Under the pieces are notes generated by a model. That model was not told the origin of the DNA and made no database searches. It saw only the letters and a list, made by a program, of their open reading frames with translations. Of a DNA stretch of 64,000 nt, positions 3,001 to 58,965 are shown in pieces. The stretch's first letter is position 1; each line of letters starts with the position of its first letter. The stretch spans positions 32,932,651 through 32,996,650 of the forward strand of contig OX424558.1 of the NCBI GenBank assembly GCA_949152475.1, in the 5' to 3' direction. The translations under genes were made by a program, and so were the position numbers. The stretch comes from Terebella lapidaria (lineage: Eukaryota; Annelida; Polychaeta; Terebellida; Terebellidae).

Positions 3001-4670
3001 GCCATGAAGGCACCACCCTATGAGGAGAATACTGCAATGGTCGTAACAAGGTACAGTAGAGCTAGTTATTGATATGTATTTGCAATTAGAACTAGACAGT
3101 CTTGAAATTTCAATGTGCATAAAGATGTTTTGTACATTATCATTGTCCATCTTTGGCATTTGTGACAGCAGAAAAGAATCCAAGATTGTATTATGTTTCC
3201 ATCTATGTTCCTCACACATAATTGTCACCATCGCCGTCACTGTCCTCATCCACTGCAGGGTCGCCGTCAAATCCAGCATGTGGAAACAATGCATAGGTCT
3301 ATATTCTGAAAGATCACTCACACTCACTAAGTCTCACCTCACACTCATTGAGTCTCACCTCATCCTCATTAAGTGTAAGTTCGGCCTCAGTAAGTGGAAG
3401 GTCGACTTGTATCTCCAGTTTTTCCTCACGGTCAACGACATTGAGTGATGACAGATATCCAGAACCTGAAACACCCGGCATTACGAAGGCAAATGATTTC
3501 GTGGCTAATGTGGAGTCCAGTTTCGAGGGCCGGCACCGGCGAAAACGGGGCAGGTATACAGAATGGTCAAATGAACTGGAGGCCATGATCGCCAGGCACG
3601 CAGCACAAAATGTCAACCTCATTGCTTGCAAGAAGTTCCAACTGTCGTCAGTGTCGTCAGTGATAAATTACTCAAAAAGCTGTACTTATCCCATGTACTG
3701 TATGGTGAGCCCGAGAAGGCATTTCTTAACAGTCGAGGCAGACCATTACTCCTAGGCAAGCAAATGGATCAGGCAACTATGTTGAAAATCTTCGTTTGAA
3801 AGGGTGCCCTGTCAATAGAAATATTGTCTTTGCTGCTGCCAAAGGCATCGTCACTCCGCAAACCACTGGTCAACTACAGCCAGAATGACTGAATTTGTTG
3901 AATTCATTTTAGTTACTTACTTCAACGCAGTGCGTTCAAGACTGGGACTGCAATCAGATCTGAAATGCCTGCTCATTCTGGACGTATTTGCTGCACACCG
4001 CACACCAAAATTTAGGGAAAAGCTGGCCGAAAGTAACCAGTCTATGTATCAGCAGGAGCGATCTGGGGATTTACAACCACTTGATATCAACGTCAACAGG
4101 AATTTTAAATCTTTGCTGAAGGAGCAGTTCTCGACCTGGTACTCGGATGAAATGGGCAGGCAACTGATGAGTGGCACAGCGATAGACGACGTGGACATTG
4201 ATATCGGCGGTGCAAAAAATCAAGAACATCCATGCGACCAGGGTTATATCAGCAATTGACAAGCTGTCGAGAAATGTAGAGCTCATCACATCAGCTTTAA
4301 CGAAAGCAGGTGTAACTCCTCTAACTCCTCTGTATTGTATTTATCCCGAATCAAAACCATAGCATGAAAATATGGGTCAAATATATACAAAAATAACTCT
4401 GGTACGTGGTACACCTCAAAGGCAATTTAGCTGATAACCCCACACTGAACAACATAATACAAAAAGTGAATAAGGAAGTGAAGTGGGCCAACATGACATT
4501 ATATAACGATTTCGAGTATGATGGAGGTGAAAGAGAAAGAAGAAAAAATCACAGACAGAAGACAAAAGAAATAGGAAGATAAAAACGATGGTCCATGCCA
4601 AAAACCCCACGTAACCCCCATAGTAGACCTATAGCATGTTCAGCATTATTTGTAATCAGTGAAATTGACA
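1..4670 (+). repeat. Tandem unit copy A (right 4.67 kb of a ~5.3-kb unit)
   Basis: This stretch matches copy B at an offset of about 9,485 bases with only scattered substitutions and small indels. Its start lies outside the window. Relative to B it lacks about 100 bp near 4,320. It holds about 3.3 kb of non-coding sequence and then a decayed pogo-type transposase. Within it, about 1-920 and 1,230-2,035 are diverged direct repeats of each other (period about 1.2 kb), each with the same run from a CTGTAAGGTTT motif through a CTCACGTAATCCACA motif. Copy C has only one of these, so the internal duplication came before the A/B split but after the split from C. The unit boundary falls near 4,670, where a LINE is inserted. 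Confidence 0.85.
3348..4316 (+). pseudogene. Decayed pogo-type transposase, copy A
   Basis: The N-terminal part (from about 3,460) reads as a basic helix-turn-helix region around RHRRKRGRYTEWSNELEAMI, followed in another frame by a CENP-B-like block (SRGRPLLLGKQMD, then VENLRLKGCPVNRNI). The C-terminal part (3,885-4,316) is the end of a DDE_1 catalytic domain with LLILDVFAAHRT and LQPLDINVNRNFKSLL. The central piece of the domain, including the first catalytic Asp region that copy C retains (VNIDQT), is deleted; sequence jumps from AAAKGI to HSTNHWS. A frameshift near 4,215 is shared with copy B. Known family: pogo clade of Tc1/mariner. It cannot encode an active enzyme. The shared breaks show the two copies arose by segmental duplication, not independent transposition. 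Confidence 0.8.
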
Positions 4671-9330: not shown

Positions 9331-12300
9331 TTCCGATAAAACTTCACTATGCGCTGACTGAACTGTTTAGACATTTCTGACGGTATGTCATCGCTCTCAT
9401 GAAGGAGTTCTTTTTGGGAAAGTCGATTTTAAGTAAGCTATCCAAATTTATATGACTATAATTGTTGTGATTGAATGTTTGTGACACAGTGATACCATCA
9501 GACTTCCCATGTACAAATATTAAAAAATTCTAAATAAAATAAATTTCCTTCTGTGTCTCAAATATCAAAATATTATACTGGCATACTTGTTTGCTAATTG
9601 AGTCTGGCGTACTAGTTCGAAAGTGCAAATTTAATGTAGTACTGATTTTTTTTATGTAAACTTCCCTAACCTCGAGATGAACAGCAATCTCTGTAAGGTT
9701 TTGGAAGTGGATTAATTCCATCCAAGTGGGGAGGTAATACTATTACGGGCATCACGTGTCGTAAAAATGTTACTGCGTTTTGTCTCATTGCACAAACAGA
9801 AAGCATGACTGGACCGAGAAGCCGCAGTAATTTCTGGAGTAATCCCATTGCGATGACATCACTGAGGAATAATACCATTATCCTAGCAGTTCATCCACTG
9901 AGGATACTGGAGTGTTTCGAAAAGCACCTAGTGATATTGTTTTCTGGGGGAACACATGATTTCAACACACACAAAAGTTCACATAATTTTACATTATGTA
10001 TTGGACTACTGTCTCGCGTGCATACACGTTGGTTTCCCATGTTGTCTTATATTTTTTTAGTTGGCGGTCACTAATGTCAAAGGTGGGTTGATATGACCAC
10101 AAAAGAATAGTTCCTTTTTGGAAACAATGCATCAAAATCTTCAATTTTTGGTTTCCATGATAGATAAATTTCCCTTCACAACTCGAAAGCAACAAATAGC
10201 CCACTCTCATCTCGCACACCATATTCGAGGTATGATTCACTAATGGCTCTCACGTAATCCACATCAAATCAAATTCTACAATATGTATGGCAGTAATATC
10301 ATTGTATTAGTTCGTGTTCTCTGGTGCAAAATGACATCCGAGGAAGAACTTATACTGTCCTACCATACATTTTCATACCCGTTGCAAAGTATAAATAAAG
10401 AAACGGATGTGAAAATTGAAGCACAATTGTAATATGGCGACAAATTATGACAGAATGAGAGAAACAACTACATTTCACACACTCTCTGCCCCTGGTGACG
10501 CCAGTGTATCTTTCGATGAACTTTTTGGTTGGACATTGTTTCTATGCTATTGCTGGCATCATCAAAATCTAGTTGTTTTGGTAGTAATAGATTGATACTT
10601 ACGTTTATACATTTCTAGCATGTCATGGCTCTTATTTTGTTGTAAAGTCGACTTTAGGTCAACTCTCCAAATTTATATGACTATAATTATTATTATTGAA
10701 TCTTTTTGTCACAGTGATACCATCATTTTCCCAAGTATAACATTGGAAAATCCTAAATAAAATAAATTCCGTGCTATGTTCCATACATTAAAATCATGCC
10801 GTTGTACTTCGGGCGTGTTAGTTTCCATCCAAAAGTGCAAACCTTATGCAGTACTGATTCTTTATATCAACTTTCCTCTGTAAGGTTTGAAAGGGGATTA
10901 ATTCCATCGAAGTGGCGAGATAAAACTATTACGGGCATCATGTGTCACAAAAATACTACTGCTTTTGTCTCATTGCACAAACAGAAAGCATGAATGGACC
11001 AAGAAGCCGCAGTAATTTCTGGAATAATAATGTTCATATGATTTTACATCACATGATGTTAACATTTGAACAAAATCAAGTTTCCACGTTGTCATTCAAA
11101 TATATTCTTCTCCTAATGATGTCAGAGGAGGGTCGATATGACCATGCATCAAAATCTTCAATTTTTGGTTTCCAGGATAGATAATTTTCCATTCACAACT
11201 AGAAGGCAATAAATGGACCTGTCTCTCTGCCAATGCCAGAAAGCTACTGGGAAACAACTATTATCATCATGAGCTAAATGTGGGACAGAATTTACGAGGG
11301 CTGATTCACTAATGGCTCTCACGTAATCCACACGAAATTAGATTGTACATTATTTATTACAATAATGTCTGTGTACTTTTGTGTTCACTGGTGCAAAAGG
11401 GAACTTTAAGGAAGGCCTGCTATTACTGATGTTGTATTGATTGGTATGTACTATAAAGTTTATAGATAAACTGTCCTACCATGTTTAATATGGTTGCAAA
11501 ACGTCCTTCAATCCATGGTCTTTGGATGGTCCCTCAGCATGAGATATAAGAGACTGCAAACGTTCACATTGTTATCGAGACAACACAAATCCTGCAGTGT
11601 AAAATGCAAATATCAAACTAGAAATAAAGAAATGAATGTTAAACTTTAATTAAAGTTCATTTCTTTTGACGAAAACAATCTAATGATGATGAAAACACAT
11701 GACACATGTGCATAATAGTTAAGCACACGGATAAAGTGGAGCAACAAATAATAGGACCTCGTCATATTCACACTCAAATAACTGTGATCATAGTTGTACC
11801 GAATGAAAAATTAGAAATACATTTATGTATATACATTATGATGGCATTATGCATAAGACCGTGATAACATATATTGTATCAGTTTCCGCCGATATTGATC
11901 CATACTCATCACTTTCATTAGTTCTGTTACCCATTGGACTTGAAGACATTTCTCACTTTGAAAAAAGGGTGTTTGTTGTTGGAATTTTTTTAATTATAGG
12001 TAGAAAATACACAGTGGAAGTGAAAATGGTTCGAAGTGAGTTGGTAGTTTTCGAGATAAACCTAGAAGTGGCAGACCAATTTAATTACAGAAATAATGAT
12101 ACTAGAAACAAATAAGATCTTGTGTATTTCTGGTGACTCTGAATATTACTAGCAGGCTATAAAGAAGTCCCTACCCATTAACATCCCTACCCATTAACAG
12201 TTTTTTTCTCACTTCAAGACCTCTAAGAACATAATGTTCCATGTTACTACGTTCTACAATTCTGAACAACATATGAAGTGGTAATTACGACATCGCCAAT

Positions 12301-12830
12301 GAATCCCTTCTGACACTAACAGTGAGAACACAATAAAATATAAATTAACTGAATAATACGTAACTAATCATGCAAAGGTAATGAAATAATGCATTTGATG
12401 CAAAAAGTCCACATTTGTCATTGGTAGATTGCATGCTAGCAGGAATATCGAACACTATATCATACTTATATAAATCTACATATGCCATGAAGGCACCACC
12501 CTATGAGGAGAATACTGCAATGGTCGTAACAAGGTACAGTAGAGCTAGTCATTGATCTGTATTTGCAATTAGAACTAGACAGTCTTGAAATTTCAATGTG
12601 CATAAAGATGTTTTGTACATTATCATTGTCCATCTTTGGCATTTGTGACAGCAGAAAAGAATCCAAGATTGTATGATGTTTCCATCTATGTTTCTCACAC
12701 ATAATTGTCACCATCGCCGTCACTGTCCTCATCCACTACAGGGTCGCCGTCAAATCCAGCATGTGGAAACAATGCATAGGTCTATATTCTGAAAGCTCAC
12801 TCACACTCACTAAGTCTCACCTCACACTCA

Positions 12831-13803
12831 TTGAGTCTCACCTCATCCTCATTAAGTGTAAGTTCGGCCTCAGTAAGTGGAAGGTCGACTTGTATCTCCA
12901 GTTTTTCCTCACGGTCAACGACATTGAGTGATGACAGATATCCAGAACCTGAAACCCCCGGCATTACGAAGGCAAATGATTTCGTGGCTAATGTGGAGTC
13001 AAGTTTCGAGGGCCGGCACCGGCGAAAACGGGGCAGGTATACAGAATGGTCAAATGAACTGGAGGCCATGATCGCCAGGCACGCAGCACAAAATGTCAAC
13101 CTCATTGCTTGCAAGAAGTTCCAACTGTCGTCAGTGTCGTCAGTGATAAATTACTCAAAAAGCTGTACTTATCCCATGTACTGTATGGTGAGCCCGAGAA
13201 GGCATTTCTTAACAGTCGAGGCAGACCATTACTCCTAGGCAAGCAAATGGATCAGGCAATTATGTTGAAAATCTTCGTTTGAAAGGGTGCCCTGTCAATA
13301 GAAATATTGTCATTGCTGCTGCCAAAGGCATCATCACTCCACAAACCACTGGTCAACTACAGCCAGAATGGCTGAATTTGTTGAATTCATTTTAATTCCT
13401 TACTTCAACGCAGTGCGTTCAAGACTGGGACTGCAATCAGATCTGAAATGCCTGCTCATTCTGGACGTATTTGCTGCACACCGCACACCCAAATTTAGGG
13501 AAAAGCTGGCCGAAAGTAACCAGTCTATGTATCAGCAGGAGCGATCTGGGGATTTACAACCACTTGATATCAGCGTCAACAGGAATTTTAAATCTTTGCT
13601 GAAGGAGCAGTTCTCGACCTGGTACTCGGATGAAATGGGCAGGCAACTGATGAGTGGCACAGCGATAGACGACGTGGACATTGATATCGGCGGTGCAAAA
13701 AATCAAGAACATCCATGCGACCAGGGTTATATCAGCAATTGACAAGCTGTCAAGAAATGTAGAGCTCATCACATCAGCTTTAACGAAAGCAGGTGTAACT
13801 CCT
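12831..13803 (+). pseudogene. Decayed pogo-type transposase, copy B
   Basis: It is the same structure as copy A: a basic N-terminal region with RHRRKRGRYTEWSNELEAMI (about 13,019-13,075), a CENP-B-like segment in a shifted frame, then a DDE_1 C-terminal part from 13,368 with MAEFVEFILIPYFNAVRSRL, LLILDVFAAHRT and LQPLDISVNRNFKSLL. The central catalytic part is deleted at the same point as in copy A, and the frameshift near 13,698 is shared. After it the frame continues through an IDKLSRNVELITSALTKAGV segment, the normal C-terminal tail of this family. It is non-functional. Confidence 0.8.
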
Positions 13804-14164
13804 CTAACCAATGATCAAAACCCAGTACCATAGCCTGACTCACAGCGAACATGTAGTCTCACCCAGGGTTGTTACGCAATATATGTAACGATTTATTAGT
13901 GTATTGTATTTATCCCGAATCAAAATCATAGCAACAAAATAGGGGTCAAATGTATACAAAAATAACTCTGGAACATGGTACACCTCAAAGGCGATTCAGC
14001 CGATAACCCCACACTGAGCAACATAATATACATAGTAATTGAGGAAGTGAAGTGGACCAACATGACATTATATAACGATTTAGGGTAGGATAGAGATGAA
14101 AGAGAAAGGAGAAAAAATCATAGACAGAAGACAAAAGAAATAGGAAAAAAAGATAAAAACATGC

Positions 14165-17968: not shown

Positions 17969-19100
17969 TCAGTTAAGATCACCAATAGCTTGTTGACCTA
18001 GTTTCTTCATTATGTCGAACCGTTTCTTTCCTAGATGCTTAAAACCTGGTTCACAATTGCGCATCACAACACAAAGAACATTCACAGAACTATCACCGCG
18101 AAGTATCTTCAGGAGTTCGTGACCCATCCCGTAATCATCGTCCGAGTTGAAGTTTTCGAGGAGTTCAGAATCATTTTTCACCCGATAAGCATAAATGAGG
18201 TGCGAAGCTGTGTCTACATCTGGGAAAGTCATCACTTTGTTGAGACCTGCAGAGACCTCTCCGAGTGAGTTACACGTGACAGCAAAGGAGCGAAACGTGC
18301 TCCCAGACTCTTGCACCTCATCACTTCGGCCGACGTGTTCTACCAAGAAGTCCTCTCTCGGTGGAGGTGCAGGCAGTACAGGGGCGAGGAACTTAGTTTG
18401 AACTTGACCCTTGATGTAAAGTTCACCTTGTTTCAGTTGGGCACGGTTACGTTTGTCAGTTTTCTTGTCATTAAATTCGTCAACTGCAAATTGTCTACGT
18501 TCAGTCGAAGCTGGTGGCCTTTGTCTGGATACTCCATGGCGAGTGTTCCTGAGACGATTGCCATGCTTCAGGACAGTCTCAAGTTGTTTGGCGATTGGAA
18601 ACTTTGCTAGAATAGGCCTGTGGGAATCAAGACGACTGCTCGGAAGTCGATGGGCGACTGGTATGTAATAGGACTGGACATTTGGGATGGACATGACCTC
18701 GCCAAGAAAACGTCTCACGACAGAAATAGAGTCTTCACCTTCTATTTCTTTGACTATATTAGCGAACTTTGGATCATTGTCAAACGTGAAAATCAAGTTG
18801 TATTTCATTTGTTGCTGCTTGAGATCGGTATGTTCATCTTTGAGCCGGGACATTGAAATCTCCATTCTGGACATTTTGGATTTCAAAAGGGAAACAGTTT
18901 CACGGAGCGAATCTTGATCGGATTTCGAAGAATCAGTTGACAAGTTGGATTCAAGTTCAGTCACACGACTCTCTAGCGACTCTAGGCGTTTGATTGTTGA
19001 CTCAGTGTTTTGTTCATTTGACCAGTTTAGCCCATGCTTCAGAGGCGAATCCCGAAGGACACTTATCCTGCTTTTCTGAGCTTCTCAGACCACTTGCCAT
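17969..19100 (-). CDS. LINE 1 ORF1: coiled coil, RRM/CTD and IMPACT-like domain
   Basis: The likely start is the ATG at 19,100 (MASGLRSSEKQ...). A single frameshift near 19,022 separates it from the long open frame that runs to 17,969. Order of parts: a heptad-rich coiled coil (about 18,990-18,800, IKRLESLESRVTELESNL); an L1-ORF1p-like nucleic-acid-binding region (YNLIFTF, then VAHRLPSSRL and RPILAKF, about 18,810-18,520); then an IMPACT/YigZ (UPF0029)-like domain at 18,301-17,984 with STFRSFAV, HLIYAYRV, DDDYGMGHELLKIL and VLCVVMRNCEPGFKHLGKKRF. The last block matches the order of the host family (STFQA, HNIYAYR, DDGE, GGRLLHLM, VVVSRWYGG). ORF1 proteins bind the LINE RNA. An IMPACT-like domain there is unusual. 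Confidence is high for the LINE ORF1 and moderate to high for the domain. Confidence 0.8.
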
Positions 19101-25526: not shown

Positions 25527-26390
25527 GTGATGACAGATATCCAGAACCTGAAACGCCCGGCAATACGAAGGCTAATGTGGAGTCGAGTTTCGAGGGCCGG
25601 CACCGGTGGAAACTGGGCAAATATACAGGAAGTTCAAACGAAATCAAGACCAAAATCGCCAGGCACACGGCACAAAATGGCAACTTCAGTGCCTGCAAGA
25701 AATTGCCTGCCAGTCGTCAGTGATAAATTACAAAAAAAACTCTACTTATCCAATCTACTGTATGGTGAGCCTGAGAAGTCATTTTTCAACACTCGAGGCA
25801 TACCATTACTCCTAGGCAAGCAAATAGATCAGCAGATGACCGACTATGTTGAAAATCTTCGTTTGAAAGGGTGCCATGTCAATAGAAATATTGTCATTGC
25901 TGCTGCCAAAGGCATCATGAAGGGATCAAATTTGTCTGTGGTCAACCAGCCTGAGATTGGGCTGAAGTGGGCTGAATCTTTTCTCAAGAGACACGATGTC
26001 ATTAGACGCAAGCGTACATAGGCAGAAAGAATATTCTTAGCAAATTTTGAGGCTGCTAAGCAAGAATTTTTTTATCTTTATCGACAATGTCATTGCAGAA
26101 AATTGCATAATCCATGGTGACTTGATAGTCAATATCGATCAAACTGATCTGAAGCTTGTTCCGGTTTCAGAGTGGACTCAAGGATCCTCTATAATTATAG
26201 CCGATCCTTGGTGGACTCTTGAGAAAGCAGGTAAGCTCAGTACTAACACTTCAGTACTGTGACTTTAATTTCCTCTAAGCAAAACAAAGATGATTTCCTG
26301 CAACTATATGAATTGTTTTCCTTCTAAACAATTATAGGCACACAGGTGGCCATTAAAGGAATTGAGGATAAGCGTGAGATCACATGCAGC
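25527..26390 (+). pseudogene. Pogo-type transposase, copy C, best-preserved N-terminal half with an intron
   Basis: Pieces in order: a basic N-terminal segment (about 25,600-25,700, LGKYTGSSNEIKTKIARHTA); a CENP-B-type DNA-binding domain (25,790-26,019) with TRGIPLLLGKQIDQQMTDYV, NRNIVIAAAKGIM and KWAESFLKRHDVIRRK; then, in another frame, the start of the DDE_1 domain (26,119-26,230) with LIVNIDQTDLKLVPVSEWT, where the Asp of NIDQT is the first catalytic residue. A GT-AG intron (26,231-26,337) joins EKA to GTQVAIKGIEDKREITC in phase. Homology ends near 26,390. Copies A and B lack this middle part. Frameshifts and a stop after KRT make it non-functional. Confidence 0.78.
26231..26337 (+). other. 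Spliceosomal intron in the pogo transposase
   Basis: The donor is GCAG|GTAAGCTC and the acceptor ATTATAG|GCACAC. It is 107 bp with a pyrimidine-rich stretch (TTTTCCTTC) before the acceptor. Splicing restores the family motif of Gly-Ser/Thr-x-Val-x-Ile-x-Gly followed by D-K-R-x-x-T. This is inferred from reading frame and family pattern only. Confidence 0.65.
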
Positions 26391-35826: not shown

Positions 35827-37981
35827 CCGTCAGATGGAGTTACTTTGGCCCACTTTTGAAATATTCAGCCCCACAATGAGCTTGTTTAAGACTAAACCAA
35901 TTCTCCTTTTGTAAATAACAGATCCCAGTAAAGTTGTCAAGATGTAGCGTACGTCCATTCGTGCCTCGAAACAAAATATATCAAGATTTACACATGAAAT
36001 TTGAAATCTTCAGAGTTGGGTGACTTTGGCCCACTATCCAAAAAATCATTTCCAGCATCAATTACCATCAAAAGGAATATATAGTTTATTACGGAATAAA
36101 TACTACCTACAAATGTATACTAACAAGTACAATTTACAGTTATTTCATTCATGGAAATTTGACTTTAAGCTTAGTGTCTATTTCACATCCAGTGTTAGAG
36201 AAACTTGTAGCCGGTTCCTGGTTTTCGATGTCTTCAGCTTCCTGGTTTTCGATGTCGATCTCTTCCCAGGGGTTACGTTTTTTTGTTTCTCCGTTTCCTC
36301 TCGAGTTCTGCAGAATCATCACTAACTGCCGCTGGATTCAGTCCGTAAGAAGGCAGTCGCCGCAGCACTTCGTCTCTGTTCAACGGAAAAATGCCTGACT
36401 TCCTGAACTGAACGCATGTACTCTGGACATTTTTTTGACAGACGAGTTGACAGGGTTTTCAGCAATGCACGGAACATGTGTTTCGGTAGAGGCCCAGCGT
36501 CTCATCCTTTACCCTTTTGCTTGCAGTCAGCAAGCACCTTTCGCCAGGCAACTTTCATCGGGTGGAAGTAGGCGATGTCCAGTGGCTGCATCAGGTGGGT
36601 TGAGTTCGGGACCAGGGAGATGAATGAGATGTTGTTCTGCTTGCACTTCTCTATGACATGTGGATTGATGTGAGATGACGAGTTGTCACCGATGAGAGTC
36701 TTTTTTCCTGCTTGTCTCTTCAACCTCGGCAGCACCACTGACAGAAACCAGTCTCCAAAGATCGTGGTATCGAACCACCCGCTCTTTGACCGGTTGTAGC
36801 GAGCGCCATCAGGACCACCTTCTGTCCATGTACTCCACATCGATTCTGCTTTGTACACCACGTACGGGGGCATAACTTCGCCTGCTGCATTCCCACAGTC
36901 AATCAGCGATACTGATGATTTGGTTGATTATCCGTTGTCGGTATTTTGTGCTTCGGTTTTGTGATAACGCTTTTGGAACCAGGGTCATCGGTCAAGTTTG
37001 TCTCATTGTAGTTCCAGATGTTCTCTGGAGAAACACCTTCGTCTTCTTTCTCTATGTGATCGAAGTACGCGTTGACGCTTGATTCTCCAACCTGAGCTCT
37101 GCCCTTTTTTATGTTGCTTGCCAATCTCTCCGTTAACTCCCGGTGTTGACTGATGAACGAACGGGCCCACTCACGTCCCAGAAAATTATTCTGGAAGAGC
37201 CTGAGCTTGAAACTTTTTTTTGGCCAGGTATGCCTTGATGATGAATCGCAGATCCAGCAAATCCACCAGAAATCCGTACTGCGACATCACTGTGATAGAG
37301 TCCACAAACAAGTTTTATTCATCATTAGTGAAAGCTTTCTGACCACCAGCAGATTTGTCATGAGCGTCCGCAAGCTTGTTTTTCAGTGTGCTCCTGAGTA
37401 CTTTGAACTGGCTAGCTGCTTTCCTTTGTGTCAGCTGTCCACTCCTCACAGCTGTCAGTGCTTCCGTCAGTGGTTCATCTGTGTAATCAGAGTAGTGGAG
37501 GTTCCCAGGGCGCCTCTTGTAGACTCTGGGCATCCTAAAGAGTAATACAATTACATGTTCATGCCATATCATCAATATCTCCAAGTGGGCCAAAGACACC
37601 CCATTTTGATATAAACTATTCAATGTCTAGCCTTTGTATTACCTATAACGTCAATAATGTTCAGAACGCTCAATAAATTACACCTACATAAAAATGAATA
37701 CCTGTTGGCTGCTACGGGTCGAATGAAGGCAAGGCAGTTGGGATCTATCGACCACTCCTCAACAAAATTTTGATGTATGTCAAATACACTATTCAGGACA
37801 AAATTTCAATCCTAGGTGATTTGCAGCAGTAAATGATGAAAATAATTCATCACATGTGCATTTCACCTGCACAACTGATTGTTGCAACAAAAAACGTCAT
37901 GAGGTAACTAGACCACACTGCTTTTGTGATGTCACAATCAAACACATTTCTGTTTTGGGCCAACGTCACCCCATCTGACGG
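35827..37981 (-). mobile_element. 2,155-bp pogo-like DNA transposon
   Basis: The ends are CCGTCAGATGGAGTTACTTT (35,827) and, inverted, CCGTCAGATGGGGTGACGTT (ending 37,981); the 26-bp terminal repeats differ at three positions. TA lies on both sides (35,825-35,826; 37,982-37,983), and removing the element plus one TA restores the Tc1 reading NFVYHDDKAPAH, so the insertion is exact. A second copy of the GGGTGACTTTGGCCCAC motif lies inside each end (36,018 and, inverted, 37,573), giving a pair of likely transposase-binding sites per end. One transposase gene is on the minus strand. Confidence 0.9.
36250..37533 (-). pseudogene. Pogo-like transposase (Psq HTH, CENP-B HTH, DDE_1), broken
   Basis: The likely start is MPRVYKRRPGNLHYSDYTDE at 37,533. 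N-terminal pipsqueak-type HTH (about 37,480-37,370, RKAASQFKVLRSTLKNKL); CENP-B-like part near 37,300-37,120 (MSQYGFLVDLLDLRFIIKAY, then NKGRAQ-type stretch with SSVNAYFDHIEKE); DDE_1 start with ENIWNYNETNLTDDPGSK (37,020), where Asn-Glu stands where family members have Asp-Glu; then PPYVVYKAESMW, YNRSKSGWFD, KKTLIGDNSSSHI (second catalytic Asp), LVPNSTHLMQPLDIAYFHPM; C-terminal tail RDEVLRRLPSYGLNPAAV near 36,340. Length is about 400 codons, normal for the family. Several frameshifts and a stop near 36,502 break it; the frame changes at about 37,310, 37,120 and 36,900. Confidence 0.82.
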
Positions 37982-38245
37982 TACCATGATGACAAGGCTC
38001 CTGCACACAGGGCTCGTAGGTGGCCACTTTCCTTCAGGATTAGGGGGTTGAGCACTTAAGATAAGATAAGATAAGATTAGATTTATTTAACGTCGGATCA
38101 ACAAAACATAAAACATTAGCCAATTGGCTATTTACCGACATGATCATAATGAGAATGTACAATGAGAGGAAAATATTTACAAATGAACATACATTAATCA
38201 GTTGTGCATAATATATTTATACACTATAGAAACATCACATGCGCA

Positions 38246-41206
38246 TCACAGCTGGTTCAAAATACAAACTTTGCAGACTGTACAAGCACAGTTTGGGCCT
38301 GTCCATGATTTTATCATTCTTTTGAATGTGTTGTAATTTTCACTAGATTTAATTGTGGTAGGCAGTTTATTCCATAAGGCCGAACCTTGGTATCTAAGAC
38401 TTTCTTTTCCGTAACTTACGTTGTTATACTTGGGTATTTTGACAATACTAGTTCAATCTTTCATATCATATTTTTTCTCCTTCGCATGGAAAAGGTCATC
38501 GATAGGAACATTATGACACAGCGTTTTATATACATGCATCGCTATGAGTTTCAACCTATGTACATACAACAGTGGTTTTTCACATTTCTTTCTCAGTTCT
38601 TCATATGATGACTTAAAATCATTGAAAACATATCGTAGTGCACGTTCTTGTATTTTCTAGATTTTCTTCAAACTAGTTACGCTACAGAAGTGCCAAACTA
38701 GTGGACAGTAGTTGAAGTAAGACAATATAAAACTTTCGAGCAACATAAGTTTCTGCTTTTCCCCCAGTACTTTCGACAGTCTTGCTATTACAGTAAGATT
38801 TCTGCCTGCTTTTTTGCAAATTTCAGACACATGTACATCAAAGTTCAAACTGTGGTCTATGTGAACACCAAGTAGTTTAACACATTTTTGAGGTTCCAGG
38901 GTTATATCACCTATAGTCAGAGGACTATCCATAAACTGTTTGCTGAATGTTATGAATTGGAATTTCGAAGGATTTGCCTGGAGACCATTGTTTTTGAACC
39001 ATTTTATGGCCAAGTTTGCACATTTGGTGATATTATCAATGATATCTTCCAGTTTGGTACCAGTAACACAAATGGTATTGTCATCTGCATAGTTATATAT
39101 ATCACATATGTTTTCCATAAAGTACATTAGATCATTACAATATATGTTGTAGGCAAAAGGACCTATCATTGAGCCTTGAGCTGTGCCTTTTTTTACTGTT
39201 AACCAATCACTTCGATTGTCCCCAAGCTTCACCCTTTGTTTACGTCCACTAAAGTAGTTGCCCAACAACGTGCACGCATCGTCACTAAACCCATATGCAT
39301 CAAGTTTCGCTACCAGTAAACCATGTGATAGGCAGTCAAAAGCTTTTGACAAGTCTGTCATTAGAGCTGAGCATATAAGTTTGTTGTCGAGGGCTTTCTT
39401 ACAATTTTCCATCATATCAATTAGAACAGTTTCGCAGCTATAGCCTTTCCTAAACCCTGACAGTCTATTTGACATCAATGGATTCATACACCGTGACATT
39501 TGATCAATTAGCACAGACTCAAACACTTTGGACAAACATGGTAATACACTAACAGGTCTATAGTTTTCTTTGAGAAGTCTGTCACTTTTCTTGTATATAG
39601 GTCTCACCTCAGCACACTTGAGCTCACTTGGGAATCTGTTAGAGTCAATTGACTTATTGATCAACCCCGTAACAGGAGTGACTAATACAGTTGCACCTAA
39701 TTTCACGAGTTTAGGTGGTATGGCGTCATGCCCAGTGGCTTTGTTTACATTTATACTGCTCAGTTTTTCCAGCACAGCTTCAGGTGTTACATGGCAGAAC
39801 GAGAATACATTCGAGCAATGGTTGTTTTTAATAGATATGACACTTTCATGTCCCTGGTGCTTGCCTATAATGTGCTCTATGGGCTCATCCCCTATTTCAT
39901 CATCAAAACCAATGTCATTGGCAACATTAACATAATAGTTATTAAGAACATTGCATACATCAGATGGGTTGTTGATAATATCATCATTTTCATTCAGACA
40001 GACATGGTCTGTTGATGATTTCATATTATCAGATATTAATGGTTTGACTGTTCTCCAGAAGTCTTTGGGATTTTGCAGATCAGAACATTTATCTTTCAGA
40101 TACAGCATGATGCTTTTTTTCCTGAGTTTTACAACTAGATTTCTGAACCTTCGATAATCTTCCCAGTTTTTGGAAGATTTACATTTATAATATTTTCTTC
40201 TAAACATGTTTCTTATGTTGATACATTTCCGGAGCTCAGAGTTCATATATGGGACCTGGTTATGTTTCACAATTCTTGTTTTGAGAGGTACATGTTCATC
40301 AACAATATTCCTCAGTAATTTTTCACAAAACCAATAGGAGTCATCTATATCTTCAAATATATCACCAACATGGAAAGGGGCTACAGACAAGTCATCTTGA
40401 TAGTTAGATTCATCAAACTTTCTACAGGATCTGTATTGTATTTTCCTTTGTACATTCTTTGGCACATGTTGCCTTGTGGCAAAGCATACCATATGGTGAA
40501 AGTCACTAAGACCAGTATCAATACAGGCTACATGCATAAAACTTCTAGGTATGTCAGTTAGCACTATATCAATGAGAGATGGTTCCTTTCCCTTAAAACA
40601 CGTGGGTTGTTTAACCCTATTGGTAATTCCATGAGTTGCAAGAACATTATTAGAGGTCAGCATATTCACATTGATATCACCACATATCACAAATGGGGAA
40701 TTTTCCTGTTCTATTTTCATCATAAGTTGTTCAGTTTTTTGTTTTACATCTTTCACACATGGCTGCTTATACAAGTTACACAAGAGCAATTTCTTATTTT
40801 GAAGCTTTATCTCCACAACAATATTTTCTACTCTACCTATTTTGCTATTATCTATTTCCAGATCATCTCTGTGACGCTGAGGAATATCACTTCTTATAAA
40901 CATCATTAGTCCACCAGAATTTGACATAACATCTTTTCTGTATACAGTATAGTTTGGTACATTAAATTGGGCAGATGGAAATGTTTCGTCTAGTTTGGTT
41001 TCCTGTAATAACAATACGTCTAACATACTTTCCATCAAGCATGTTTTCAATGGTAGGAATTTGTGCCTGACACTATTTATATTCAAGCTTCCAATTTTCA
41101 AATTAGAAACATTTTGCGAGTAAAAAGCCTTCAGACCATCAATTGTATCACTGGCTTCGTTATCAGAAGGTAATATTCTGGGCATGTCATGTTGATCATT
41201 ATTCAC
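38246..41206 (-). CDS. LINE 2 ORF2: AP endonuclease and reverse transcriptase
   Basis: An 849-codon open frame runs from 41,206 to a TAG at 38,657. The same frame continues past it (KIQERALRYVFNDFKSSYEE), meets a TGA near 38,454, and ends at 38,246 with CACTVCKVCILNQL, the cysteine-rich end usual in this LINE group. Endonuclease (about residues 35-250): KIGSLNINSVRHKF, LLLQETKL, GDINVN, SLIDIVLTD, SDFHHMVC. Reverse transcriptase (about 480-780): ENYRPVSVLPCLSKVFESVL, LSGFRKGYSCE, TDLSKAFDCLSHGLL, AQGSMIGPFAYNIY and YADDNTICV. Total about 986 codons. Only two stop mutations are seen, so the copy is fairly young. It makes the enzyme for target-primed reverse transcription. Confidence 0.9.
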
Positions 41207-41302
41207 AGTATTACTAGAGATAATACAGTCATGGACATTATTATGGTCATTAGCAGTTACATCAATGTTATTATATCCGGCTATTCCTGCATTGCCGTTT
41301 CC

Positions 41303-42690
41303 CTACACATAAAGATGACAAAGTTTGTTCTTATGTCCCATTCGGTTACAGTTACAACAGCGGATAACCCTACCATGTCCACATTGTGCCTTGAGGTGTC
41401 CTTCTTCACCACAGTAGTCACATGGGGTATCCGGGTGGCGATGGGGTTGTCTTTGTCGCTTTCTGTGAACCGTGGTCCAGCCTGTGTTGTCATCGGGGCA
41501 TGTTTGACGCGGAGGTGTGTGGAGATCATGCCGCTGATGTCCTCCACGGATGCCCGTAGTCTTGTGATGTAGGGGTGCCTGGTCTTGCCTGGTAGGAATG
41601 CCCATGCTGGCTAAGACGTCACGGGCTGCATCAGTGATGTGCTGGAATCGTCTCAGACCAAGATGGTGACCACCGTACCATCTGCAGACAACAACAGCTG
41701 TGTCTGTCACGTTGTTCTCGATCAGCAACCGTAGTAGTTTCCCACCAGCTCCAGTTTCGCCGTCATCTACACATGACTCAGCTGGCTCCATCCCTGATAG
41801 GCCAGGATCTTGTGTGTGGCCACGCGGTGTGAGCTGCTGTTCAGCATGTCTTGGAGCTGAGTCACTTCTTCGAGACTGTGAACCTTGGCGCCGAAGGCTT
41901 GAAATGTGCTGCCATTGTCGCTGAATCTTTTCCCAGTCATCACTTTTATTTTCTCCGTTCGCTTTCCTCGTGGGTTTCGTTTCCTGCGTCCATTGCTGCA
42001 GTAGCTGATGGCTGTGTCTTTTCTTTTCAGTCCGAGATTGAGTGCAATCTTCTCTGTTGCTTTTGTTGTCAGGTGAACGCCATCATCCATCAAGAGGGCA
42101 TCGTTGACAGAGTTGTCTCTCAGGATGAATATGTTCGAGTGATCAACAAAACTCACAGCTTTATCTTTGCAGAGTTGCCTGAGTCCTTCATTTGTTTCTA
42201 TGATCTTCTCATTGCAGTCTGTCGGTGTGATTCTGGGACAGATGCTGGACATCACAACATGCTTTGCTCGGGATTTTGCAGTGTCAATGACGTCTGCGAA
42301 GGTGTGGAGAATATCGCTTGTTTCTTCTGCTTCATCTGAGTCACAGTCATTGCCTCCAACTACAACGGATATCGTGCTGTACTGGGCTTTGGGAGCTTCC
42401 TGAAGTGTCTTGTGGATATCCATGACCTTCCCTCCTGGCTTGCACATCACGCGCGTGTTGTCAAGTCTGTGTTCGTCAATGTCACGGATAATGCTGCTTC
42501 CAACCAGTAAGGAGGGGGGAGTGGCCAGTGTGTTCACCACATGTGAACCCCATAGAGAACCCATGGAATGAAGTACATTGTAACCTGTCGGACCAACAAC
42601 CTGGTTCAATATACCCCTGAACACCTTGAGGACCCTGCCTGAGGGTTTGCCCCGCCGTGTGATGGCGGGGGGAGGGGAGGTATTGAACAC
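41303..42690 (-). CDS. LINE 2 ORF1: SGNH esterase, IMPACT-like domain, two zinc knuckles
   Basis: The first frame (42,690-41,767, 307 codons) holds an SGNH/GDSL esterase-like domain: LLVGSSIIRD (nucleophile Ser66), PGGK, VVGGND (Asn114) and MDDGVHLT (Asp203/His206), all catalytic positions kept. It then starts an IMPACT-like domain (STFQAFGAKV, ATHKILAYQ). A one-base frameshift at about 41,790 moves the rest to a second frame (41,791-41,303): DDGETGAGGKLLRLL, then TAVVVCRWYGGHHLGLRRFQ, almost the host IMPACT signature, followed by CDYCGEEGHLKAQC and CCNCNRMGHKNKLC, two CX2CX4HX4C knuckles. Esterase ORF1 proteins and zinc knuckles are known in CR1-group LINEs; an IMPACT domain in one is not something I know as described. 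The frameshift may be a copy-specific lesion or an assembly error. Confidence 0.82.
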
Positions 42691-42994: not shown

Positions 42995-43790
42995 ATAATA
43001 AATGTCAACCCTGTATAGGAAATGATACATGCTGAATATTCCTATGACCTTGAACTTGACCTCTGACCTTATTTTCAATATCAGAGAACAAACGGGCTAA
43101 AATATCGCTTATTATTGACTTTACAGCTTACAATAAATTGGGGACATATAGGAAATGATATATGCTGAATATTATCATGACCTTGAATGTGACCTTTGAC
43201 CTAATTTTCAAAGTCAGAGCATAAAATGGCTAATACCTTGCTTATTCTCAACTTTACAGCTTAATAATCATATAGTAAACGATATATGCTGAATATTGTC
43301 ATGACTTGAATTTGACCTTTGACCTTATTTTCAAGGTCAAAGCACAAAATGGCTGAAATCTCAATTATTATTGACTTTACAGGTGTGCAATCAATTGACC
43401 TCATATAAGAAATGATATATCTGAATAGTCTCGACCTTGAATTTGACCTATGGCCTTTTTTTCGAGGTCAGACCACAAAATGGGAAATACCTTGCTCATT
43501 ATCGACTTTACAGCTTAGGAATCCACTGTGCACATATAGGAAATGATGCTGAATATTGTCATGGCCTTGAATTTGACCTTAGACCTCATTTTCAAGGTCA
43601 AAGTACAAAATGAGTGATATCTCACTTATAATCGACCTAACCGCTTAGCAATCAATTGTGGACATACTAGAAATTATATATGCTGAATATTCTTGTGCTC
43701 TTGAATTGACCAATGACCTTATTTTCAAGGTCATGGGACAAAGTAGCTAATATCTAAAATTAATGTTGTCCGGTAACCTTCCTCAGCCCT
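42995..43790 (+). mobile_element. GGTTACC-family element, copy 4 (array and tail only)
   Basis: About six diverged 134-bp units with the TGCTGAATATT...GACCTTGAA core run from 43,010 to 43,745 and end in TGTCCGGTAACCTTCC then TCAGCCCTTG at 43,790. The family head is missing, and the next body follows without a gap, so two copies appear fused. Confidence 0.7.
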
Positions 43791-45894: not shown

Positions 45895-47650
45895 CTTTGT
45901 TATGTTACCGGACCTATGGTCCAATAACTTATTGCCGTGGCGTTGTGTCCGTCGGTCGTCGTCTGTCAGTCGTTTTCTCAAAATCTGTTCAGTAACTGTT
46001 TTTCTTATTGATGCATAATACTCCTCATATATACCCCTGTGACGTGTATAAGTTGCGTTTCCCTTGTATCGCTCGAAGTGGCCCATTTTGGGACCGAACT
46101 CGGCCCAAATGGGACTTTTCCATATTAAATTCTCCTACGCTTTATAATGGGACACATTTTGCCTAATATCTCACTTAATATTGAGATTAGAGTTCATACT
46201 CAATTGTAGACATATAGCAAATGATATATGCTGAATATTCTCGTGACACTGAAGTTGACCTCTGATCTCAGTTTCAAGGTCAGAGCACAAAATGGCGAAT
46301 ACCCGCTTATTATCGACTTTACAGCTTAGAATCAATCGTGGACATATAGGAAATGATATATACTGAATATTGTTGTGACCTTGAATTTGACCTTTGACCC
46401 AATTTTCAAGGTTACTGGACAAAATGGCTAATATCTAGTTGATTATCGACTTTACAGCTTAGGAATCAATTATGAACATATAGGAAATGATATAGTCTGA
46501 AAATTGTCGTGACCTTGAATTTGACTGTTGACCTCATTTTCAAAGTCACAGGACAAAATGGCTAATATCTCACTTATTATCGATTTTATAGCTTCGGGAT
46601 CAATTGTGGACATATAGAAAAATGTTATACGCTGAATATTCTAGTGATCCTGAATTTGACCTCTGACCTCATTTCCAAGGTCAAATGGCTAATATCTCAA
46701 TTATCATCGACTTTACAGCTTAGGAATCAGTTGTGAACATATAGGAAATGATATATTCCTGAATGTTGTCATGACCTTGAATTTAACCTTTGACCTAATT
46801 TTCAATGTGACAGGACAAAATGATCAATATCTCGCTTATCATCAACTTTACAGCTTAGGAATCAATTATGAACATATAGGAAATGATACATACAGATTAT
46901 TGTCGTGACCTTGATTTTGACCTTTGACCTAAATTTCAAGGTCACAGGACAAAATGACTAATATTTCGTTTATTATTGACTTTACAACTCAGGAATCAAT
47001 TGTGAATATATAGAAAATGATATATGCTGAATATTGTCATGACCTTGAATTCAACCTTTCACCTCATTTTCAAAGTCGAAGGACAAAATATCTTGCTCCT
47101 CTGACTTTATGGCTTGGAAACCATTTGGACATATAGAAAATGATATACACTGAATATGTTGATGACCTTGAATTTGACCTTGAACTTATTTTCAAGGTCA
47201 GAGCACACAATGGTTAATAACTCGCTTATTATCGTCTTTGCAGCTGTGGAATCCATAGTGAACATATAAGAAATGAAATAGGCTGAATATTTTAGTGACC
47301 TTGAATTTGCCCTCTAACCTTCCAGGTCAGAAAACAAAATGGTTGATATCTCGCTTATTATCGACTTTACAGCTTAGGAATTATTTGTGAACATAGATGA
47401 AATGATATATGCTGAATAGTTTTCATGATTTTGAACTTGACTTCTGACCTCATGTTCAAGGTCAGAACCCAAAATGGCTAATATGTCACTCATTGTCGAC
47501 TTTACAGCTTAGGAATCAATCATGAACATATTGGAAATGATACATGCTGAACATTCTCATGATGTTGAATTGGCCAATGACCTTATTTTCAAGGTCACAG
47601 GACAAAACGCTAATATCTAAAACATATATTGTCCGGTAACCTTTCCTTTC
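45895..47650 (+). mobile_element. GGTTACC-family element, copy 6 (longest array)
   Basis: The head is ATGTTACCGGACCTATGGTC (45,902), then the GCCGTGGCGTTGTGTCC segment, a shortened body, and about eleven 134-bp minisatellite units from 46,190 to 47,600. The tail is ATATTGTCCGGTAACCTTTCC (47,625). It lies within the proposed large intron of the cGAS-like gene. Confidence 0.8.
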
Positions 47651-55745: not shown

Positions 55746-57386
55746 TCAACTTATTGAAAATTGTCAAAATAGAAGAAAATGACCTTCAATGACCTTGAAA
55801 GGTCAAAGCAGCAATTTTGGTGAAAAAAAACAAACGGTTGTGGCTAACACTTTACATTTCTCTGGTAGACTTTTTAAACATTTACTATAATTTTTCAGCC
55901 TTATCAGTACTATTTTTGGGGTGAAAGGGATGATAGGGCTGAGGGGACACACCTCATAAGACAACCGGAAAGTGTCTAGCTTTCATACTAAATTGTCTAC
56001 AAACTGGAATCTGTATAGTCTATAAATCACTCAAAGTATTTACTCAAAAATACTCAATAAATATGTCATGTATACGGAGCACGATGAATTAATCTATATT
56101 TTCTAATGAATGATTGTTATTAATACATACAATGGAATATTCAATGATATTTTGTTTGTATTGAACATATTTTTGGCAACAGAGATACACCCACATTGTT
56201 GTCAGTGACTGCAGGGCATCTGTTTGTATAATGAACATATAGAAAGTCTTATGAAACATCTTTCAATCATCTTGAACATGACTTGAGTTGACATTGAGCG
56301 ATGAAATTCAAAGTTATCCCCTTGTGCAAACTGGTCTTTGGATGATTTAATATGGTGATTACTTAGTAATAACGCTTTCCTTATATGGTCAAAATGGAGC
56401 ATCAAAATACAACATTATTTAAAAACTCCCAGTTTCTCTTCCAAATGCACATGTATTACTTTAAAATGTCTCTCTTTTGGTTTGTACAGTTGTAATAGGG
56501 GCATTCTTTTTGTACATGTGAATTTTCATGTTGATTGGAGCTGTTACTGTGCACATGAATTCACATAAACAAACCGGCCCTTTCTGGGAGTTTGCTCCCC
56601 GAGGAATTCGCCTGGTGTCAGCAGCTTATGGTCAAATGCTTGTAGCGTGTGATCTATTCCTACAACATGTGCTGATTTTTTTATATTTTGTAAGTTATAA
56701 ACATTGCTTCAGCATACTGAAATTGTATCAAAATTGATCCTTTTTGAAAATGTTTTCTCTCATAAAACGTTAGAATGGAGTTAAATGGCATTCTTATATA
56801 TGTTCGATAATCTGGTAACCTGTCAATGAGCTACAGTACCCCCCCCCCCCCCTCCTTCGAGAAGAGACGCCCCAACCCCGTAGTGCTAGGCTTAGTTCAA
56901 CATGTAAATGAACCACTCCAGTAAGGCTTCTCCTCCAATGAGACCTCATTTTGTGGCAAAAACGTAGGCCTCATCTGATTCATCTCAGGGAAACCACTGT
57001 ACAATGCCCTTGGTCATGTTCAGATTTTGTGGCACAATGCCTTTCATTTCTCCAGTAACCTCTTTTCTCGCCCTTCGGTTATATTATCTGACAACAAAAA
57101 AGGTCCTGTTAGAATATCAATTAAAATGCAGATATTTCAAATCAAGGTCTTGCTAGACTTGTCTTTTTTCGAGGAAACTTTGGTGTGGTGTCGTAACAAA
57201 AAATTAAGCATGTTGTCACATAAATGTCAAATGTCAAAGGTGTCATGTTACCTAGACAGAATGTTCTACGAAACTTTTGAGAGAAAAAAACAACCACTGT
57301 GGCATATGTCATCACAGCTTTATGTATAAACTTCAGGTTTATAACTCTGCCTGATTGTGCTGTATTTGAAATTAAATATTTTACAG
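55746..57386. other. Repeat-poor end of the large intron; no exon recognised
   Basis: It contains GACCTTGAAAGGTCAAAG at 55,790 and a 15-base C-run at 56,832-56,851. A frame at 56,528-56,737 has no family resemblance. The acceptor of the nucleotidyltransferase exon is at the right edge (ATTAAATATTTTACAG|ATTC). If the first exon at 45.7 kb is correct, this is intron. Confidence 0.5.
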
Positions 57387-58780
57387 ATTCATTTACCACT
57401 GAGATTGAGGAACAGTATAAGAAATCACTTGGAAGTGATTCACTGGATGAGACAATACCAGAAGTTGAGAACTTGCAGGTAGACCAACACAAACGGGAGG
57501 TTTTCAAAGCAATTGCAGAACATGCTGATTTAGAGCCTCGTCAAAAGCGTCTAGTAAGCTATCATGAAGATGATGAAACGGTTGGCGCACTGGAAAAGAC
57601 CACTGATTATATCCTTCGGGAGCTTGATGGAGAGGTTCCATACGCTGGTCATCTGTGTTTTGTCGGAAGTTGTGCGGACGAATGCCGCGTGGGGAGGACG
57701 TCGGAAATGGACACCCTTTATGAAATAATAGGGAGGTATGAATTCGTAAGAGAAGGCAAAAATTCCTTTAGTGTCTATTCCAAAACGGGAGAAAAAATTG
57801 TACCGTCAGAACTCAGGGAGAAGTTCGCAGATGCAGTAGAACAAGCAGTAAAAAGATGTCCACACATTGGGGAAGGCGAGATCTTGTCCCATGGAGGCTA
57901 CAACGCTCCTCGTTTCAGTGGTGTGAGATACAGTGGCCCTGCAATCACCATTCTCCTGCGAACTGCTGGGAAGAAACTGTCAGCACCACGAAAATCTGGA
58001 ATGGAACCAGGAAGAGAAAAAGAAACAGAGCAGCAGTATTTAGACATATCCATTGACATCACGCCAGCCTTCAGGCTTCCAGTTGACCATGATGTGGTAC
58101 AAGACGTCCGTCGCAAAATGCTTCCATTGCAAAAAACCCTTCCCAGGAAATTCATATCGGAGACAGATGTCCATCTGGTACCTGACGTCAAGAGTGACAC
58201 TTGGATGCTGACGACTGCTCTCCTTGAAGCTAAGCTGTTTTCAAGTCTTCCTGACAACTCGTCCCTGAAAATGGCCTTTGCACTGGGTAAAATTATTGGC
58301 TATCACAGCTCAACCACGGATTGTGACGCCAAAACAGGTCTTCAACGAAGAATTATTGAAGAACTGAGCAATATGAAGCAATTGCTTCCACATGACGTCA
58401 AACGTCTTGAATGGAACAGGTGCATGCGATACGCACACAGTTTTTTAGGGAAGAAAGATGCCGTCAGCTTTGGGGAATGTGCAAAACCGGAAGCTACAAC
58501 GAACTCGGCAGCACTAAAACACGTCCTTATCAGGAAAGTGATGGATCAACCATCCTTCTTCAAAGATGCTAAAGATCTTGAAAACGATTTCAAAAAACTG
58601 GTATTGGAAATGTTCCAAACTATTGCTAAATTGCAAACTTCTGAGATACAACATGCATTTCTAGAGAGCTGTAAATTGAATGCATTTTCTCTGTCGAAAA
58701 TGGCTCTTCTTGGAGAACGGAGAATTCAGTTGAAACAGCATGTGAGGGATCAATACAAACTGAGCTACTTGTTTGATGAG
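57387..58780 (+). CDS. cGAS-like / Mab-21 nucleotidyltransferase, main exon
   Basis: A single exon of about 464 codons between a good acceptor (TTTTACAG|AT) and donor (GATGAG|GTATGT). It encodes a nucleotidyltransferase of the Mab-21/cGAS-like receptor family: FVGSCADECRVGRTSEMDTL has the G-S pair followed at the exact cGAS spacing by E-x-D (codons at 57,704 and 57,710), and YLDISIDITPAF supplies the third acidic residue (codon at 58,055). The C-terminal half (WMLTTALLEAKLFSSLP, then SAALKHVLIRKVMD) fits the helical Mab-21 lobe. No cGAS-type zinc thumb (H-x5-CC-x6-C) is seen. Such proteins sense nucleic acid and make cyclic dinucleotides that activate STING, or lack enzymatic activity, as in Mab-21. 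The intact triad favours an active enzyme. Ankyrin exons follow in phase. The frame is open upstream of the acceptor to 57,299, but that part is likely intron. Confidence 0.88.
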
Positions 58781-58965
58781 GTATGTATTATTTCAAATTC
58801 TGGTGTATAACGAAATTCACGAACAATATCTTATTACTTTCCTAATTAACGAAAACGTTGAATATTTAACTAAAGTTAATACACCATTGCAAAACATAAG
58901 GAATTTCTTTACTCACCACTGGTCAAACACTAGCTTAAATTTGCACATATTTCAAAATGATCTAG

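What the first reader, a model, noticed from the sequence alone, without database searches (positions are those of the whole stretch)
41650..41915. A second, unrelated LINE carries the same IMPACT-like domain between an esterase and zinc knuckles
LINE 2 ORF1 reads SGNH esterase, then STFQAFGAKV/ATHKILAYQ, then after a one-base frame change DDGETGAGGKLLRLL and TAVVVCRWYGGHHLGLRRFQ, then two CCHC knuckles. The RWYGG block is a near-exact match to host IMPACT proteins. Two LINEs with different ORF1 backbones sharing this domain suggests it is either ancestral in this LINE lineage or has been exchanged between elements. I know of esterase ORF1s in CR1 elements but not of this combination.
Basis: partly seen in the sequence, partly recalled or inferred. 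Interest (0 to 1): 0.9.

Follow-up and report, generated by a model that had tools for sequence, protein, structure and literature searches.

The report
LINE protein carrying an IMPACT domain
A decayed jumping element (LINE) carries, in its first protein, a piece related to the cell's IMPACT protein between an esterase-like domain and two zinc knuckles, and a second, related element in the same stretch carries that piece too; what it does there is not known.

Summary
On the minus strand an ATG frame (42564) holds an SGNH esterase, then the first half of a UPF0029 (IMPACT "ancient") domain; at 41794 homology passes, by a one-base change of frame, to a frame with the second half, two exact CX2CX4HX4C knuckles, a TAG and, in the same frame, ORF2. 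Read across the break with an X, the domain matches UPF0029 end to end (E 2.1e-25); its nearest solved relative is yeast Yih1. LINE 1 of the window has the domain intact in one frame, at the end of a different ORF1 (E 2.7e-10); its model matches Yih1 and YigZ. "Unrelated" is not borne out: the reverse transcriptases of LINE 1, LINE 2 and two LINEs from a mussel-symbiont assembly group together (94/94), though the latter carry a PHD finger instead. Most likely the domain is a real ORF1 module of this LINE group, with the 5' part of ORF1 swapped. Its role (RNA or ribosome docking) is a guess; the domain's cellular function is itself unknown. New variant of a known kind.

The parts
42562..42564 (-). 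first ATG of ORF1 (frame a); true 5' end of the element not found
42037..42507 (-). SGNH (GDSL) esterase domain; GSSII 42501-42487, PGGK 42438-42427, VVGGND 42363-42346, DDGVHLT 42087-42067
   Evidence: Pfam (Lipase_GDSL_2 E 4.5e-8); PDB 4c1b 'ORF1-encoded protein' E 1.4e-4, which PMC3905857 gives as the zebrafish ZfL2-1 esterase; positions
41959..41988 (-). arginine-rich core of the linker between esterase and IMPACT-type domain (the 50 residues around it have pI 11.4)
41794..41913 (-). N-terminal half of UPF0029/IMPACT ancient domain, frame a (profile 2-40)
   Evidence: E 5.9e-4; joined E 2.1e-25
41794..41794 (-). place where homology passes from frame a to frame b (one-base change of frame)
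41612..41785 (-). C-terminal half of UPF0029/IMPACT ancient domain, frame b (profile 47-107), with DDGETGAGG and RWYGGHHLG
   Evidence: E 2.3e-16
41381..41422 (-). CCHC zinc knuckle 1
   Evidence: gag nucleocapsid matches E 0.02-0.06 over both knuckles
41318..41359 (-). CCHC zinc knuckle 2
41303..41305 (-). TAG between ORF1 frame b and ORF2, which share one frame
38657..41302 (-). ORF2, endonuclease (about 41089-40664) and reverse transcriptase (about 39592-38858), open to a stop at 38659-38657
38246..38656 (-). rest of ORF2 C-terminus in the same frame, with a further stop at 38455-38453; ends at 38248-38246
   Evidence: compared by eye with the L002 C-terminus
38057..38082 (-). 3' tail of 5-base repeats (5.2 copies)
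17969..19084 (-). LINE 1 ORF1, UPF0029 in one open frame at its C-terminus (18304-17984)
   Evidence: E 2.7e-10, 40.6 bits; Yih1 E 8.6e-7; model, fold match

Best explanation
LINE 2 is a decayed copy of a LINE of a group that includes LINE 1 and two PHD-type LINEs from a mussel-symbiont assembly. Its ORF1 protein was esterase - basic linker - IMPACT-type (UPF0029) domain - two CCHC knuckles in one frame, broken in this copy by one change of frame. The domain comes from a eukaryotic IMPACT/Yih1 protein, without its RWD part, and is shared with LINE 1, where it ends a different ORF1. The most likely history is that the 3' part of ORF1 (IMPACT domain, next to ORF2) stayed while the 5' part was swapped. 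Most likely mode of action: the esterase brings the RNP to membranes, knuckles and basic linker bind the element's RNA, and the IMPACT domain is an added docking surface of the RNP, most likely for RNA or ribosomes. Shown: anatomy, homology, fold of the LINE 1 domain, RT kinship of the two LINEs. Inferred: one intact ancestral frame, eukaryotic source, direction of swapping. Guessed from family knowledge: the docking role.
For: Complete UPF0029 profile across the break, E 2.1e-25, halves meeting at one point. First half in frame with the esterase, second half in frame with the knuckles and ORF2. Same domain intact and in frame in LINE 1 ORF1; best of five models pLDDT 79.3, pTM 0.75, whose first three PDB matches are Yih1 (E 1.4e-5), TT1547 (1.2e-3, TM 0.73) and 1vi7 = YigZ (3.2e-3, TM 0.77). 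Best sequence match among solved structures is 6bqi = Yih1, 67 bits, against 14 and 12 for the two YigZ-type proteins. Both LINEs and Yih1 read GSTF where the 9 short bacterial proteins that I read have GSKY or GSRY. RT tree groups LINE 1 and LINE 2. Lipid binding by a LINE esterase (PMC3905857, passages) and ORF1 exchange between LINEs (PMC4120745, Discussion) are in print.
Against: One decayed copy of each LINE; no other copy of either in the window and no relative with this ORF1 found: PF01205 absent from the 6 assemblies with RT-core matches (0 of 1; 0 of 5); no close relative of the frame b protein in viral or genome contigs. LINE 1 has lost the YGG motif, so the domain may be eroding there. 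The other four models of the LINE 1 domain had mean pLDDT 71.5 to 48.7. The IMPACT tree rests on long branches. The nearest ORF2 relatives have a PHD finger and no such domain. For docking: the Yih1 region sufficient for ribosome, Gcn1 and actin binding takes in the linker between RWD and ancient domain, and the ancient domain's own function is called unknown.
Confidence: 0.62

Rival explanations
1. A fragment of the host IMPACT mRNA was pasted into this one LINE copy (template switch or processed pseudogene) and is not part of the family's ORF1.
For: Only one copy seen; domain of eukaryotic IMPACT type; no host IMPACT gene was available to compare with.
Against: The fragment would have to land on the right strand, in frame with the esterase before it and with the knuckles after it, without RWD or stop. 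LINE 1 carries the same domain in its ORF1 too.
Confidence: 0.08
2. LINE ORF1 uses the domain to meddle with GCN1/GCN2 stress signalling, as IMPACT does.
For: The domain is homologous to the C-terminal part of Yih1, which inhibits Gcn2 when overproduced (PMC7140605 and PMC4503747, passages).
Against: The Gcn1-competing part is the RWD domain, and no RWD is among the Pfam hits of either ORF1. The ancient domain's own function is stated to be unknown.
Confidence: 0.12
3. The one-base change of frame is a programmed -1 frameshift that sets the ratio of esterase-only to esterase-IMPACT-knuckle protein.
For: The direction equals a -1 slip at 41794.
Against: The change falls inside a folded domain; no classical X XXY YYZ site was seen by eye there (no program was run for this); this copy has other lesions in ORF2; LINE 1 has the domain in one frame.
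Confidence: 0.05
4. LINE 1 and LINE 2 captured IMPACT domains independently from host genes.
For: Different ORF1 backbones; LINE1-LINE2 identity of 28% is below LINE2-Yih1 39%; L002 and L003, nested between them in the RT tree, lack the domain.
Against: IMPACT tree LINE1+LINE2 92/75 (weak) and same RT group; one capture is simpler.
Confidence: 0.3

Closest known systems
Esterase-type ORF1 of LINEs (type IV; ZfL2-1, PDB 4c1b)
   Same: SGNH esterase in ORF1 with the four blocks; 4c1b is its best solved match; an arginine-rich stretch in the protein (ZfL2-1 has one too)
   Different: Esterase begins about 20 residues after the ATG with no room for the N-terminal coiled coil of ZfL2-1 (the 5' end of this copy may be lost); IMPACT-type domain and knuckles follow. 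Among 448 Jockey-superfamily elements the esterase type was found only in two vertebrate groups (PMC4120745); PMC3905857 also lists transposon esterases of cnidarians and sponges, so an esterase outside vertebrates is not new in itself
IMPACT/Yih1 proteins and UPF0029 (YigZ) family
   Same: Whole UPF0029 domain, DDGE and RWYGG motifs in LINE 2; fold of the LINE 1 copy
   Different: No RWD domain; embedded in a retrotransposon ORF1
PHD-type LINEs L002 and L003 (Bathymodiolus brooksi symbiont assembly, taken by me for host DNA)
   Same: Nearest ORF2 found, 37-38% identity over about 850 columns, RT grouping 100/100
   Different: PHD finger before the endonuclease in one frame; no esterase, UPF0029 or CCHC hit
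LINEs that captured other domains (virus-like helicase in Jockey ORF1 and TRAS ORF2)
   Same: An extra, non-LINE domain fixed in a LINE ORF
   Different: Helicase of viral origin; only the abstract was read (PMC5563155)

Membership tests
UPF0029 (PF01205) | score over Pfam cut-off of 27 bits | tested here: met
   60.2 bits frame b alone, 89.2 joined with X, 40.6 LINE 1; the frame a half alone, 20.3 bits, is under it
UPF0029 (PF01205) | fold | tested here: met
   LINE 1 domain model: Yih1 E 1.4e-5, 2cve TM 0.73, 1vi7 TM 0.77; the LINE 2 domain was not folded on its own
IMPACT/Yih1 protein | N-terminal RWD domain | tested here: not met
   no RWD among Pfam hits of either ORF1
Esterase-type (IV) LINE ORF1 | SGNH hydrolase domain with S, G, N, D/H blocks | tested here: met
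   34.2 bits against 32.9 cut-off; blocks located (block names recalled); activity not testable
Esterase-type (IV) LINE ORF1 | N-terminal coiled coil or zf/lz | tested here: inconclusive
   about 20 residues from the ATG to the esterase leave no room; no coiled-coil program was run and 5' truncation of the copy is not excluded
Gag-like CCHC knuckles | CX2CX4HX4C | tested here: met
   two exact motifs; but Pfam zf-CCHC, 13.7 bits, is under its cut-off of 20.8
APE-type LINE of the CR1/L2 kind | ORF2 with endonuclease and RT, 3' simple-repeat tail | tested here: met
APE-type LINE of the CR1/L2 kind | clade name by comparison with Repbase | not testable with these tools
   no Repbase; RT tree only with LINEs that carry no clade name
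APE-type LINE of the CR1/L2 kind | target site duplication | tested here: inconclusive
   none found; 5' end unknown

The most novel reading that the evidence does not exclude
A LINE lineage captured the ancient domain of a translation regulator (IMPACT/Yih1) once, keeps it next to ORF2 while swapping the rest of ORF1 (a different, esterase-less ORF1 in LINE 1, an esterase in LINE 2), and uses it to hold its RNP at ribosomes or translating RNA, thereby tying ORF1 protein to the RNA that encodes it.
Probability: 0.25. Interest if true: 0.85.

Novelty: new variant of a known kind. Interest (0 to 1): 0.62.

Why it matters
ORF1 proteins of LINEs are known as changeable sets of a few modules (RRM, L1-type, PHD, esterase, CCHC). 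A further module of known cellular ancestry, seen in two ORF1 backbones of one RT group, would widen that set, give a natural marker for ORF1 swapping, and offer a handle on what the ancient domain of IMPACT does, which the papers whose passages I saw call unknown.

Tried and rejected
Tried without result: close relatives of LINE 2 ORF1b and ORF2 in viral contigs and of ORF1b in genome contigs; RT alignments in viral contigs; ORF2 in phages; the esterase frame in the 6 assemblies with RT-core matches (no match); ORF1b in 3 genomes of the family of G241. E. coli YigZ relatives in plasmids (100 records) were listed but not used. No second copy of either LINE's proteins in the window by tblastn at E 1e-3, apart from the ORF2s finding each other. 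TSD not found. The IMPACT tree is too long-branched to settle source or sharing. The single-sequence model of LINE 1 ORF1 is useless (pLDDT 39.7), so no RRM is claimed for it.

Literature: all ten searches of open-licence PMC were used. The telling ones are 'IMPACT domain' + retrotransposon + ORF1: 0 papers; UPF0029 + retrotransposon: 0 papers; UPF0029 anywhere: 4 papers, none on retrotransposons by title and abstract. Searches gave capped listings (10 of 51,026; 20 of 2,437; 10 of 12) without such a paper among the rows shown; some searches asked for other things. Subscription papers and preprints are not covered. Kapitonov and Jurka 2003 is not held and was not read.

Considered and rejected: private host insertion (frame on both sides, LINE 1 sharing); GCN2 inhibition by RWD (no RWD); programmed frameshift.

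Rows dropped: only 9 of 13 fetched bacterial loci passed my motif pattern, and only those 9 entered the tree. The RT tree left out the 4 loci of G051, L027 and L030.

Full report
What is there. On the minus strand of the window, from an ATG at 42564, frame a encodes an SGNH esterase and then the first half of a UPF0029 domain (the 'ancient domain' of IMPACT/Yih1). At 41794 the homology passes to frame b, shifted by one base, which encodes the second half, a further basic stretch and two CX2CX4HX4C knuckles, and stops at a TAG (41305-41303). ORF2 (41302 onward) continues in the very same frame with endonuclease and reverse transcriptase. ORF2 has in-frame stops at 38659-38657 and 38455-38453, ends at 38248-38246, and is followed by a 3' tail of 5.2 five-base repeats at 38082-38057. 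It is a decayed LINE copy; its 5' end and any target duplication were not found. The host is not known to me; no whole genome is held for the window.

Is it more than chance? Yes. The two halves match UPF0029 on their own with E 5.9e-4 (20.3 bits, under the cut-off of 27) and 2.3e-16 (60.2 bits); read across the break with an X, the whole profile (2-107 of 107) is matched with E 2.1e-25. Against solved structures the best hit is 6bqi, the translational regulator Yih1 (67 bits, E 1.2e-17), with the two YigZ-type proteins far behind (14 and 12 bits; the title of 6bqi is given). The esterase passes its Pfam cut-off narrowly (34.2 against 32.9 bits) and its best solved match is 4c1b (E 1.4e-4), the esterase of the zebrafish ZfL2-1 ORF1 protein. 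The Pfam knuckle score (13.7) is under its cut-off of 20.8; the case rests on two exact motifs, of 4 in all six frames of the window, the other two being identical and lying in the two copies of a duplicated stretch. Frame a (42564-41794) was open in 0 of 2000 and frame b (41794-41306) in 1 of 2000 dinucleotide shuffles.

LINE 1. Its ORF1 (19084-17969) has UPF0029 at 18304-17984 in one open frame (E 2.7e-10; Yih1 E 8.6e-7). Between the two ORF1s the only BLAST matches with E under 0.1 are the two halves of this domain. The LINE 1 domain, modelled with the two LINE 2 halves as its only alignment rows, gives pLDDT 79.3 and pTM 0.75 for the best of five models (the others 71.5 to 48.7); its top three PDB matches are Yih1 (E 1.4e-5), TT1547 (1.2e-3) and 1vi7 (3.2e-3) (1vi7 is named yigZ). 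It has lost the YGG motif. A model of the larger part of LINE 1 ORF1 failed (pLDDT 39.7), so the nature of its N-terminal part stays unsettled beyond weak hits to coiled-coil-like families. Pfam finds RVT_1 but no endonuclease in LINE 1 ORF2; the endonuclease region is seen only by alignment with LINE 2.

Are the two LINEs unrelated? Not by their reverse transcriptases. A scan of prokaryote contigs with the RT core found two LINE contigs in a Bathymodiolus brooksi gill-symbiont assembly (L002, L003), which I take for host DNA. Each is one frame of PHD, endonuclease and RT; L003 is cut at its 3' end. More RT-core matches came from that assembly (20 places) and from one other of 83 genomes of its family, and from 5 of 369 of its class, that assembly included. 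In an RT tree of 26 rows, LINE 2 joins L002 and L003 (100/100) and LINE 1 joins these three (94/94, just under the tool's star level). ORF2 identity is 37-38% for LINE 2 with L002/L003 and 25% with LINE 1. None of the 6 assemblies with RT-core matches has a UPF0029 match (0 of 1; 0 of 5), so I have no sign that the domain is general in such LINEs; L002 and L003 start close to their single frame, so an upstream ORF1 outside the contigs is not excluded.

Source of the domain. The frame b protein also finds bacterial places (24 of 398 genomes; 3 of 369). Of the 13 fetched, the 9 that I read are short open frames (117-172 aa) with IMPACT-type motifs, but they have GSKY or GSRY where both LINEs and Yih1 read GSTF. 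I therefore favour a eukaryotic IMPACT source. The tree of 14 rows has LINE 1 with LINE 2 at 92/75 and these with Yih1 at 81/81, with LINE 1 on a branch of length 10; it is weak. No animal IMPACT sequence was at hand, so kinship to the host gene is untested.

How it may work. [quoted passage not shown] that protein self-associates through a coiled coil, which is not seen in this copy (PMC3905857, passages). Knuckles and RRMs serve RNA binding in other ORF1s (PMC4120745, Discussion). The ancient domain's function is said to be unknown; its invariant features cluster on one side of the molecule; the Yih1 region sufficient for ribosome, Gcn1 and actin binding takes in the linker before the ancient domain (PMC4503747 and PMC7140605, passages), which speaks against as much as for ribosome docking by the ancient domain itself. 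I still hold RNA or ribosome docking the likeliest single role (0.35); GCN2 control is less likely because the RWD part is missing.

History. Since the domain lies in the 3' part of ORF1 in both LINEs and the 5' parts differ, a swap of the 5' part upstream of the domain is the simplest account, in line with ORF1 exchange described for this superfamily. Independent capture is the main rival, and the lack of the domain in L002 and L003, nested between the two in the RT tree, speaks for it or for a loss there.

Novelty. The part of Metcalfe and Casane that I read (Results part 1 with Table 1, Discussion; 448 elements) lists PHD, RRM, L1-type, CCHC, esterase and zf/lz modules but no IMPACT-type domain, and a word search of its text finds neither IMPACT nor UPF0029. 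Full-text searches of open-licence PMC gave 0 papers for 'IMPACT domain' with retrotransposon and ORF1, 0 for UPF0029 with retrotransposon, and 4 for UPF0029 at all, none on retrotransposons by title and abstract. I rate it a new variant of a known kind, held back by resting on one decayed copy of each LINE.

Noticed in passing
window 1-4325 and 9486-13808: Direct duplication of about 4.3 kb, 97.9% identical; its first copy holds a broken frame with a DDE_1 transposase match, E 1.7e-7.
   Followed up: partly
window 57281-58810 (+): 509-aa open frame with a weak Mab-21 nucleotidyltransferase match, E 1.9e-5.
   Followed up: no
window 36502-37286 (-): Two overlapping open frames of what looks like a broken transposase; the one at 36502-36927 matches DDE_1, E 1.3e-20, the other has no Pfam hit.
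   Followed up: no
window 43014-43483 and 46160-47604: Diverged tandem array of about 133-bp units and dispersed repeats of 76-84% identity across the window.
   Followed up: no
L047, L049, L050, L051, L054-L058: Short bacterial open frames (117-172 aa) with IMPACT-type rather than YigZ-type motifs.
   Followed up: partly
G001 (L002, L003 and others): A gill-symbiont genome assembly holds 20 RT-core matches, all in open frames of 839 aa or more, probably host mussel LINEs.
   Followed up: partly
window 17984-18304 (-): The LINE 1 copy of the domain has lost the RWYGG motif kept in LINE 2.
   Followed up: no
window 25527-26021 (+): Open frame with a Tc5-type transposase DNA-binding match, E 2.8e-6.
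   Followed up: no
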